Shown here piece after piece: positions 5,896-8,536 of a stretch of 64,000 bases of DNA. The translations under genes and the position numbers were made by a program. This DNA is from Heliorestis convoluta (GTDB lineage Bacteria; Bacillota; Desulfitobacteriia; Heliobacteriales; Heliobacteriaceae), in contig NZ_CP045875.1 of the NCBI RefSeq assembly GCF_009649955.1, positions 1,283,501-1,347,500 of the forward strand. The letters run 5' to 3'. Below the pieces are notes generated by a model. The model saw only the letters and a list, made by a program, of their open reading frames with translations. It was not told the DNA's origin and searched no databases. Numbering within the stretch: the stretch's first letter is position 1; each line of letters opens with the position of its first letter.

Positions 5896-5940
5896 AAACA
5901 AGCCACCAAAGGAGCCAAGAAGCTCTTTGGTGGCTTGTTT
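5896..5940. terminator. Intrinsic terminator, probably bidirectional
   Basis: A perfect 16-bp stem (5896-5911 with 5925-5940) with flanking A and T runs on both sides, located after the methyltransferase stop. Confidence 0.85.
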
Positions 5941-6099
5941 ATTAGTTGCTTTTGTTCAAACCAGTTCATTTTCTAACCAACCCGCCATGCCTGGATGGGC
6001 GCAACCAAGATGCTACCAAACGAAACGGTCCCCCTACCATCCTGTACCAATCCATGAAAATCAGCTTTTTCCTGATTACGTTGGGGTTACTTCATAGAG

Positions 6100-6214
6100 G
6101 GGCCAGGGCATCACGCTTTCCTCCGCTCTGGACTGGTCCCACGCTGTTACCGCCAGCAAGCTGGCGACAGCTGAGGTCCCAAGTCCCGCTGCGGAAAGCG
6201 TGATGCCCTGGCCC
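6100..6214 (+). ncRNA. Structured element 1: 22-bp outer stem with conserved core
   Basis: The outer arms 6100-6121 and 6193-6214 are perfectly complementary. Inside, a 57-nt core (6130-6186) folds as GGACT/AGTCC, an internal loop with TCCCAC opposite TGAGGTC, a 5-bp helix (6143-6147 with 6167-6171) and a CAAG-capped hairpin (6151-6166). The reverse complement of 6376-6432 has the same core with compensatory changes. I do not recognise the family. A structured RNA or a hairpin mobile element is possible; the strand is nominal. Confidence 0.6.
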
Positions 6215-6346
6215 AGAGGGTTTTTGCTGATTGTTACTTCCGTTGGAGTAGCTTTGCGTAACCTCCTGTTATCCTGTTATGATTACGCAACTGCCTATTG
6301 TATTTGCAATAGGCCAAAACGTAGTCACAACAAGCAAAATGTATCT

Positions 6347-6461
6347 GGGGCAGGCCTTATTCATTCCTGGAGAGAGGACTTCAGACCTCAGCCATCGGCA
6401 GCTTGCTGCCGCTCATGGCGTGGGATGAGTCCGTTCGGAAGGAATGAATAAGGCCTGCCCC
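6347..6461 (-). ncRNA. Structured element 2: same architecture, opposite strand
   Basis: The outer arms 6347-6367 and 6441-6461 are a perfect 21-bp inverted repeat, with a sequence unrelated to element 1's arms. The minus-strand 57-nt core (6432 down to 6376) has the same helix lengths and the same loop sequences (TCCCAC, CAAG, TGAGGTC) as element 1. Two pairs in the 5-bp helix and one in the terminal hairpin have changed on both sides. Confidence 0.6.
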
Positions 6462-6517
6462 CACCACAAAGTATCTATTTTCGTAATTACCTCTGAACCG
6501 ATGTGGCTATTTTCGCG

Positions 6518-8536
6518 CTAGGCACCTTTCGTAACCCCCGAATCAGGCTCACGAAACTTCCAAACCAAGGCCACAAAAAGCCAGAACAAAATAACCATCA
6601 TAGGCACTTCAAAAACATTTTCCACAGCATTATGGAAAACAACACCGGTCAGACCACAAGCAATACCTGTAGCCAAAGCCTTCAAGCGAGGAGGCGCATG
6701 AATGGCCACACCAAAAGCCATGCGCATAACAGCAATCATTAAAGCGATAAAAGAAACAAGACCAATCAGGCCTGTCTCAGCAGCCGTTTTCAAATAATAG
6801 TTATCCGTATAGATTGTGCGATGACCGAGAAGATTTTTGTTATGATCAGCGGCAGCGCCACCAAACTGACCAAGGCCGATCCCTGTTAGTGGCTTTTCTT
6901 GAACTTTATCTAAAGCCATATTCCAGCGGTCAATACGACCCCCTTGGGCTGACTTGTTCATGTAGTCAGGGCTCAACAAATAGCTAACTCGGTCTGCCAC
7001 AGAAGGCAAGGCAATGGGAAGCAAAATAGCGCCAATTAAGAAAGCTGCTATCAAACGACGATCATAAATGGCACCAAAAAGGATAATGCCCAAAGCGAGA
7101 CCGAGCCAGGCGCCACGGGAAAAGGTAACGACCATACAAAGGCCCATAACGGCTGCACAACCTAGATAGAAAAGCCGTTGTGCAGGTGTGCCTCGATAGG
7201 CCAGTGCTAAAGCAATAGGAGTAGAAAGAACAAGTAAACCGCCTAAAACGTTGGGGCTGCCAATAATGGAATAAGCACGTGTGCGAATGCCTACTTCGGC
7301 TTGATCGACCCACGTTGAAGGCATGGGTGCTCCTGTAATGTACTGATAAACGCCATGCAAGGCAATCAGCGTGGTAGCCAGCGTAAATCCAACGAGTAAG
7401 GTAAGCGCTTCTTTGGTATGACGTAGCAATTGTACAGCCAAGTAGAACCAAAGCATATGCTGCACAATTACGCGTAAGCCATCGATGGGAACCTGAATTC
7501 GTGGATAGGTGTAGTCAATGAGAAACATAAAGAGCATAATGGCAATGAAAGCAGTAAGTGCGTAGAATGTGGGATGGTGCTTCCATTGAAAATCTCTTTG
7601 ACTAAGCCAGTGGGCAACAATGGCACCCACCATAAGCAATAAAAGTGCCTCATCCCACCACGTTGGAATGCCAAACATGTTCACCTGCTGTCGCAAAAAC
7701 CAGTCAATAGGGCCATAAAGAGCCAGCGCCCAGAGCCCTAGAATAGGACGGAAAAAGAGCAATTGCAAAGACAGCAGTATCAGGGGCAATACAAGGACGT
7801 AGGGACTGTTAAATCGTACCCACAAAAAGCCAATCACAGCACCAAAAAGCAGAAGAAGACCATACATGACGTAAGCACTGAAGCCTTCCAAAGGTGGCGC
7901 CACCCTATAATTATCGTCAACGTCAACAGAATGAAGAGGCTCATCTTTTTGAAGAGCCGAAGGCACGAAAAAGTCAGTTACTTTTGCAGGCACTGATTTG
8001 TCCCAGATGGCTTGCACCGTGACAAGGCTATTTCGCCAGAGGTAAAATAGGAGCAAGGTCCCGGCAAAGACAAAGGCTTTGAAAAAGGTCATAGCACCAA
8101 GCAAGGCAAGTGCCACCGTTAAACCTACAAGAAAAGCGAGCCCAGCTCGAGCCAGTCCACCTAGTTGCCACCCTTCAGGGCAAGCAAGGTGTCGCACAAT
8201 GGTAGCTACAATGCTTCCCCGGGAGATTTCTTCTAGTAAATCAATGAACTTTAATCGAAGAGAACGCACCGGCTTGGTAAGGGTAGCTCCAAGGGCAACA
8301 ACAAAAGAAGAAGATCGTTGGCGCTGCAAGCGCTCCAGCGGGTCTGAGGAAAAATAGCGCCCCACCAGGCCTCGCGAAGCCCCTTGCGCTGCTTTTTCCA
8401 GATAGCGATGGAAAATGCTAGAACGCCATAATTTTTCAATCTGAAAAAGGCCGCCGTAGAGGTAGAGCAATATTCTTACAAAGAGGCTGTTGACAATTAC
8501 TTGCTGAAGCGTTTGAATGATATTCAGAAGAGTCAC
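6518..8536 (-). CDS. O-antigen ligase/polymerase-like membrane protein (Wzy_C type)
   Basis: A large polytopic membrane protein of 672 residues. The N-terminal about 130 residues are amphipathic and basic. They are followed by about twelve hydrophobic segments, and the central region has the Wzy_C pattern 'RAYSIIGSPNVLGGLL ... FSRGAWLGLALG'. Such proteins polymerise or ligate polysaccharide on the outer face of the membrane. The GTG start at 8536 is uncertain. A GAGGTGA overlaps it, so initiation may be slightly downstream. It is divergent from the glycosyltransferase at 8625, and both are probably in the same cell-surface glycan pathway. The exact reaction (ligase versus polymerase) is not determinable. 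Confidence 0.8.
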   Translation of the reverse strand: MTLLNIIQTLQQVIVNSLFVRILLYLYGGLFQIEKLWRSSIFHRYLEKAAQGASRGLVGRYFSSDPLERLQRQRSSSFVVALGATLTKPVRSLRLKFIDLLEEISRGSIVATIVRHLACPEGWQLGGLARAGLAFLVGLTVALALLGAMTFFKAFVFAGTLLLFYLWRNSLVTVQAIWDKSVPAKVTDFFVPSALQKDEPLHSVDVDDNYRVAPPLEGFSAYVMYGLLLLFGAVIGFLWVRFNSPYVLVLPLILLSLQLLFFRPILGLWALALYGPIDWFLRQQVNMFGIPTWWDEALLLLMVGAIVAHWLSQRDFQWKHHPTFYALTAFIAIMLFMFLIDYTYPRIQVPIDGLRVIVQHMLWFYLAVQLLRHTKEALTLLVGFTLATTLIALHGVYQYITGAPMPSTWVDQAEVGIRTRAYSIIGSPNVLGGLLVLSTPIALALAYRGTPAQRLFYLGCAAVMGLCMVVTFSRGAWLGLALGIILFGAIYDRRLIAAFLIGAILLPIALPSVADRVSYLLSPDYMNKSAQGGRIDRWNMALDKVQEKPLTGIGLGQFGGAAADHNKNLLGHRTIYTDNYYLKTAAETGLIGLVSFIALMIAVMRMAFGVAIHAPPRLKALATGIACGLTGVVFHNAVENVFEVPMMVILFWLFVALVWKFREPDSGVTKGA

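What the first reader, a model, noticed from the sequence alone, without database searches (positions are those of the whole stretch)
6100..6461. Two oppositely oriented structured elements with compensatory base changes
Both elements have a perfect 21-22-bp outer stem of unrelated sequence around a 57-nt core of identical length and layout. In the core, loops are conserved (TCCCAC, CAAG, TGAGGTC). Helices differ by paired changes: GCTGT/ACAGC versus GCCAT/ATGGC, and CGCCAG/CTGGCG versus CGGCAG/CTGCCG. Covariation plus conserved loops is the mark of a selected RNA (or a single-strand hairpin recognised by a protein). I checked mentally against hammerhead, twister, HDV, c-di-GMP riboswitch and attC patterns and found no match.
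Basis: partly seen in the sequence, partly recalled or inferred. Interest (0 to 1): 0.82.

Follow-up and report, generated by a model that had tools for sequence, protein, structure and literature searches.

The report
REPIN-like mobile hairpin pair in Heliorestis
The two odd hairpins are one copy of a previously undescribed non-coding repeat that has spread to at least 144 hairpins (about 57 inverted pairs) across this heliobacterium's genome; it behaves like a jumping DNA palindrome whose stems change in step while its core stays almost frozen, so it is probably not a classical RNA gene.

Summary
Two long stems enclose equal cores, with paired helix changes and conserved loops. The locus is not a stand-alone RNA gene. 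The window lies in a 3,218,981-bp genome, which matches Heliorestis convoluta HH. I found 144 distinct copies of the hairpin there, 114 of them in inverted pairs 233-257 bp apart. The unit is a non-coding composite of about 460-500 bp, intergenic where examined. A congener has 13 single hairpins, most with their own stem. Two sister-genus genomes have 5 each, nearly all just 3' of 23S rRNA. The other 79 class genomes tested, Rfam, phages and plasmids have none. Cores differ 0.6-1.3% between copies, arms 5-9%, the spacer 15%. In the congener stems pair within a copy (88%) but not between copies (48%), and G.T and A.C mismatches are equally rare, so I see no sign of one-strand RNA selection. All four H. 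convoluta units in one syntenic stretch are absent from the congener, and one congener copy is absent here. At least 14 copies carry an uncompensated apical helix yet spread. Best reading: a non-autonomous mobile palindrome doublet, REPIN-like in organisation, but much larger, without GTAG feet and without a linked Y1/RAYT transposase.

The parts
6100..6214 (+). Hairpin A: 22-bp outer stem (6100-6121 / 6193-6214) around the conserved core
   Evidence: core model hit 6119-6197 (+), 89.1 bits
6347..6461 (-). Hairpin B: homologous core with a largely different outer stem, inverted relative to A
   Evidence: core model hit 6364-6443 (-), 83.8 bits
6215..6346 (.). Spacer between A and B, with a small hairpin CCTATTGtatttgCAATAGG at 6294-6313; 14.7% mean pairwise difference between units
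5986..6099 (+). Left flanking module: CATGCCTGGATGGGCGCAACC (short dispersed repeat R) ... CTGATTACGTTGGGGTTACTTCATAGAG leading into hairpin A; the most variable part of the unit
6462..6496 (+). Right end of the unit, CACCACAAAGTATCTATTTTCGTAATTACC, shared by most copies and often followed by another R module

Best explanation
It is a non-autonomous mobile DNA palindrome. The functional unit is a ~115-120-nt hairpin: a conserved ~57-nt core of three stacked helices with fixed internal loops (TCCCAC / TGAGGTC) and a CAAG-type tip, on a long outer stem whose sequence is free but must pair. In H. convoluta two such hairpins in inverted orientation, A and B, with a ~130-bp spacer form a composite that has been copied to ~57 intergenic sites, as REP doublets (REPINs) are. 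Inferred mechanism: the hairpin forms in single-stranded DNA (for example on the lagging strand), and a host or transposon enzyme reads the core loops and acts on the pair as two ends of one mobile unit. Shown: copy number, paired inverted arrangement, frozen cores against drifting spacer, cis-specific pairing of the arms, lack of strand bias, presence/absence between species. Inferred: that the acting form is ssDNA, that movement is by transposition, and the enzyme.
For: Copy number: pattern 112 core hits, control 0; covariance model 149 hits with the scoring cap reached. 144 distinct hairpins were read in G000, 114 in inverted pairs, spacing 233-257 bp. Between units, cores differ 0.6 and 1.3%, arms 5-9%, spacer 14.7%, left module 35%; the best-matching units (about 94-95%) share no flanks. 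Congener: arms pair 0.88 within a copy against 0.48 between copies, 9 copies. Two-sided changes 35 cells, one-sided 2; arm mismatches G.T 16, A.C 12 among distinct arm pairs. Occupancy differs at the MurJ-methyltransferase-polymerase locus in both directions, and three more units have no counterpart. One 23S 3' site is empty in G003. 57 clusters examined are intergenic, convergent 19 against divergent 7. REPINs share inverted doublets, conserved ends, free spacer and compensatory changes (PMC3116915).
Against: No mobilising enzyme found: the one Y1 transposase in G000 belongs to a TnpA/TnpB-type element with no hairpin nearby, G001 has three Y1 genes without a hairpin nearby, and G002/G003 have none. 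No clean target duplication was found. Single hairpins are not significantly more decayed than paired ones (p 0.17). Orientation against assumed replication direction is not significant (p 0.12, origin position assumed). At least 14 copies with a broken apical helix still spread. In the sister genus the hairpin sits almost only beside 23S rRNA, which a free mobile element does not predict.
Confidence: 0.6

Rival explanations
1. A selected RNA element: the hairpin works in transcripts (3'-end stabiliser, processing site, protein-binding RNA), and the inverted pair ensures one correctly oriented copy whichever way it is transcribed.
For: Covariation with conserved loops; in the sister genus the hairpin lies in the 23S rRNA 3' precursor and is presumably transcribed; more often between convergent than divergent genes.
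Against: No G.U excess on either strand; no Rfam match; no promoter-like site; sites not shared between sister species; broken tips tolerated.
Confidence: 0.17
2. A host DNA-structure or gene-end element (bidirectional terminator, gyrase or nucleoid site, cruciform) kept by selection at each site, like proposed REP/BIME roles.
For: Cores almost invariant in many dispersed copies; intergenic with a convergent bias; strand-symmetric.
Against: Four of four units in the compared stretch are absent from the congener, and all copies are absent from the other heliobacterial genera tested; units are often placed after an existing terminator-like hairpin rather than replacing one.
Confidence: 0.12
3. 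Stem pairing is kept by mutation, not selection: replication template switching corrects quasi-palindromes, and gene conversion among copies freezes the core.
For: Paired changes almost without G.T/A.C intermediates; divergence rises outward from the hairpins.
Against: Loops, which such correction cannot preserve, are conserved across two genera; A and B cores stay distinct despite many copies; this explains maintenance, not dispersal.
Confidence: 0.1

Closest known systems
REPIN / BIME (REP doublets mobilised by RAYT Y1 transposases)
   Same: Intergenic non-coding palindromes in inverted pairs; conserved end units with a freer spacer; compensatory changes; high copy number (PMC3116915).
   Different: Each unit is a ~115-120-nt multi-helix hairpin rather than 20-40 nt; no constant GTAG or CGTC foot; no linked RAYT; found in heliobacteria, outside the phyla listed for GTAG repeats in PMC3733652.
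MITEs
   Same: Short, non-coding, dispersed, inverted terminal units, presence/absence between relatives.
   Different: No parent transposon found, no clean target duplication; the conserved part is an internal hairpin core rather than terminal repeats.
bcr1-type Bacillus cereus repeats
   Same: 100-400-bp dispersed chromosomal repeats limited to one bacterial group, with mobile-element features and up to 130 copies (PMC6542083).
   Different: bcr repeats are tied to a TTTAT motif; here the unit is a doublet of homologous hairpins with different stems. Sequences were not compared.
Rickettsia palindromic elements
   Same: Large palindromic repeats (family recalled from general knowledge; PMC3733652 notes a CGTC foot in RPE); here, in the sister genus, the hairpin sits in an rRNA transcript.
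   Different: No copy seen inside a protein gene here; no CGTC tag noted; not compared by sequence.

Membership tests
REP/REPIN with RAYT | Doublets in inverted orientation as the dispersed unit | tested here: met
   114 of 144 hairpins read are in inverted pairs; spacing 233-257 bp
REP/REPIN with RAYT | 20-40-nt palindrome with GTAG (or CGTC) at one foot | tested here: not met
   Hairpins are ~115-120 nt; the left foot varies (ATAGAG, GTGCAG, TTGCAG, GTAGAG, GTACAG)
REP/REPIN with RAYT | A Y1 transposase gene flanked by the repeat | tested here: not met
   PF01797: one gene in G000, three in G001, none in G002/G003; no hairpin in the fetched loci around them
MITE | Non-coding element with inverted terminal units | tested here: met
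   A and B are 71% complementary over 80 nt; only short chance ORFs inside
MITE | Target-site duplication | tested here: inconclusive
   Unit ends are variable mosaics of R modules; no clean duplication seen
MITE | Related autonomous transposon | tested here: inconclusive
   No transposase-like ORF in the two wider-spaced hairpin clusters examined or beside the congener copies, judged by eye on ORFs; the whole genome was not scanned for all transposase families
Known structured RNA (Rfam 15) | Match to a covariance model | tested here: not met
   Window at gathering score, 6050-6520 at E<=10, and copies from other genomes
Functional RNA | Strand-specific wobble pairs in helices | tested here: not met
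   G.T 16 against A.C 12 in distinct arm pairs; 2 one-sided against 35 two-sided cells in the core
Functional RNA | Expressed as a discrete transcript | not testable with these tools

The most novel reading that the evidence does not exclude
A structural hairpin of the rRNA operon (3' flank of 23S, where the sister genus has nearly all its copies) became a high-copy mobile element in Heliorestis, a bacterial counterpart of SINE origin from a structural RNA, moved by an enzyme outside the Y1/RAYT class that reads a frozen core on stems of free sequence.
Probability: 0.12. Interest if true: 0.78.

Novelty: new variant of a known kind. Interest (0 to 1): 0.47.

Why it matters
It is a large, undescribed repeat family in a phototrophic Firmicute; the genome paper does not mention it in the passages searched (PMC7143216). 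It also warns against reading covariation alone as a functional RNA: hairpins in dispersed DNA repeats can show strong covariation with conserved loops. The roughly 11- to 25-fold contrast between core and spacer divergence among copies in one genome, and stems that pair best in cis, make the question of what keeps DNA palindromes paired directly testable. If the unlinked mobiliser is found, it may be an uncharted enzyme.

Tried and rejected
Rfam at gathering and at E<=10: nothing. A first pattern with wrong spacing found nothing and was replaced. Exact pattern over genome contigs: nothing; records near the window's own genome may be left out there, and the pattern spacing was the faulty one, so this says little. 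Phage and plasmid collections: nothing. Deviant 5S rRNA, considered because of the place next to 23S: rejected, since genuine 5S genes are found elsewhere (upstream of 23S in G000) and the hairpin has no three-way junction. Y1 transposase as partner: no linkage. Autonomous version with an ORF between hairpins: none seen in two wider-spaced clusters. Replication-strand bias: not significant. attC: not tested formally; set aside because the conserved part is central rather than terminal.

Full report
WHAT IS THERE. The window is G000:C1:1283501-1347500 of a single-contig genome of 3,218,981 bp, the size published for Heliorestis convoluta HH (PMC7143216); the species name rests on that match. 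Hairpin A (6100-6214, +) and hairpin B (6347-6461, -) have long stems around cores of the same layout. Both fold well below shuffled sequence on either strand (z -9 to -10.9). Rfam is silent.

COPIES. The core pattern hits the genome 112 times (58/54 by strand) with no control hit. A covariance model from A, B and congener copies gives 149 hits, with the limit of 150 scored candidates reached. In the stretches fetched I read 144 distinct G000 hairpins; 114 lie in inverted pairs, the pairs spaced 233-257 bp. The dispersed unit is therefore a composite: left module, hairpin A, ~130-bp spacer, hairpin B, right end. It has no coding capacity beyond short chance frames, and 57 clusters examined lie between genes, convergent 19, divergent 7, tandem 29. 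The genes were my own longest-ORF calls, not an annotation.

DISTRIBUTION. Among 83 genomes of the class the core occurs in four: G000; its congener G001 (13 single hairpins); and two genomes of a sister genus (5 each). Other heliobacterial genera tested have none. In the sister genus nine of ten copies sit a few tens of bases after the 23S rRNA 3' end, before a CTGTGTAGTTTT segment, mostly near contig ends broken in rRNA; the tenth keeps the outer flank only. In G000 the same segment follows 23S without a hairpin, and the segments before and after 23S look complementary, as in a 23S processing stem (by eye). One site in G003 is empty (L138). Congener copies lie between housekeeping genes by inspection of ORFs.

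WHAT IS CONSERVED. Over 35 aligned composites the mean pairwise difference is 0.6% (A core), 1.3% (B core), 5-9% (arms), 14.7% (spacer), 35% (left module) and 25% (right end); the closest units are about 94-95% alike with unrelated flanks. The copies are thus not young, yet their cores are frozen. Across four genomes 10 of 22 core pairs have two-sided changes (35 cells) against 2 one-sided cells. Related sequences are not independent, so I estimate only some 6-8 independent events. In G001 the stems differ strongly from copy to copy, but each pairs with its own partner: 0.88 in cis, 0.48 in trans. In the sister genus cis is 0.92 and trans 0.82, a weaker contrast because stems are alike. Among distinct G000 arm pairs G.T (16) and A.C (12) mismatches are about equal, so neither strand looks like the selected RNA. 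This is moderate evidence: counts are small, and other mismatches (87) are commoner than either.

BROKEN TIPS. Eleven A copies share CAAGCTACTGATRCGCTGAGG in place of CAAGCTGGCGACAGCTGAGG, and several B copies share CAAGCTGCGTGAAAGGCTGAGG. Both weaken or destroy the apical helix. Since the variants are themselves multi-copy, an intact tip is not needed for dispersal of the pair.

MOBILITY. In G001 the orthologous locus (methyltransferase 87% identical) has no composite between methyltransferase and polymerase, and has a single hairpin with another stem between MurJ and methyltransferase, where G000 has none. Short stretches resembling an outer arm (CATTGTCTGGACCGG in G001; GGTCCGGGCATTA in G000) may be scars; this is suggestive only. 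Three further G000 composites nearby (1274102, 1275659, 1281480) have no counterpart in the syntenic G001 stretch. Loss in G001 is not excluded for any one site.

INTERPRETATION. The pattern matches REPINs: inverted doublets, conserved end units, freer spacer, compensatory changes (PMC3116915). It is not a member of that family by the tests possible here: unit size, foot motif and linked Y1 transposase all fail. I file it as a new variant of the mobile-palindrome kind, with an unidentified mobiliser. Recognition of ssDNA hairpins is an inference. The rival that template-switch correction keeps stems paired is live for the arms, but does not explain the conserved loops.

Noticed in passing
L131, L133, L134, L136, L137 (G000 near 3.4-4.5 kb, 1.53 Mb, 3.215 Mb): Short rRNA fragments in which a 16S 5' part runs straight into a 23S 3' part; either real internal deletions of rRNA operons or collapse in the assembly. 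L135 joins a repeat module to 23S.
   Followed up: partly
G000 778368-782074 (L130, L141, L145): 5S rRNA genes (two) lie upstream of 23S on the same strand, an unusual operon order.
   Followed up: no
5986-6006 and many G000 loci, e.g. L046, L017: A second short dispersed repeat, CTATTTTCGTRYTAACCNNNCATGCCCGGTCGGGCACAACCAANGATGAAAA, flanks the units and also occurs in tandem; intergenic regions look like mosaics of several modules.
   Followed up: partly
L015, L030 (first hairpin), L005: Units that lack hairpin B but keep spacer and, in L015 and L030, the right end, as if the hairpin had been deleted nearly exactly.
   Followed up: partly
L110/L229 (G002:C194): Hairpin with the usual outer rRNA flank on one side, but ATPase-like coding sequence instead of 23S on the other; the other species keeps 23S there (L119).
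   Followed up: partly
5896-5940: Perfect 16-bp inverted repeat, terminator-like, just after the methyltransferase gene and before the unit; several other units also start right after such a hairpin.
   Followed up: no
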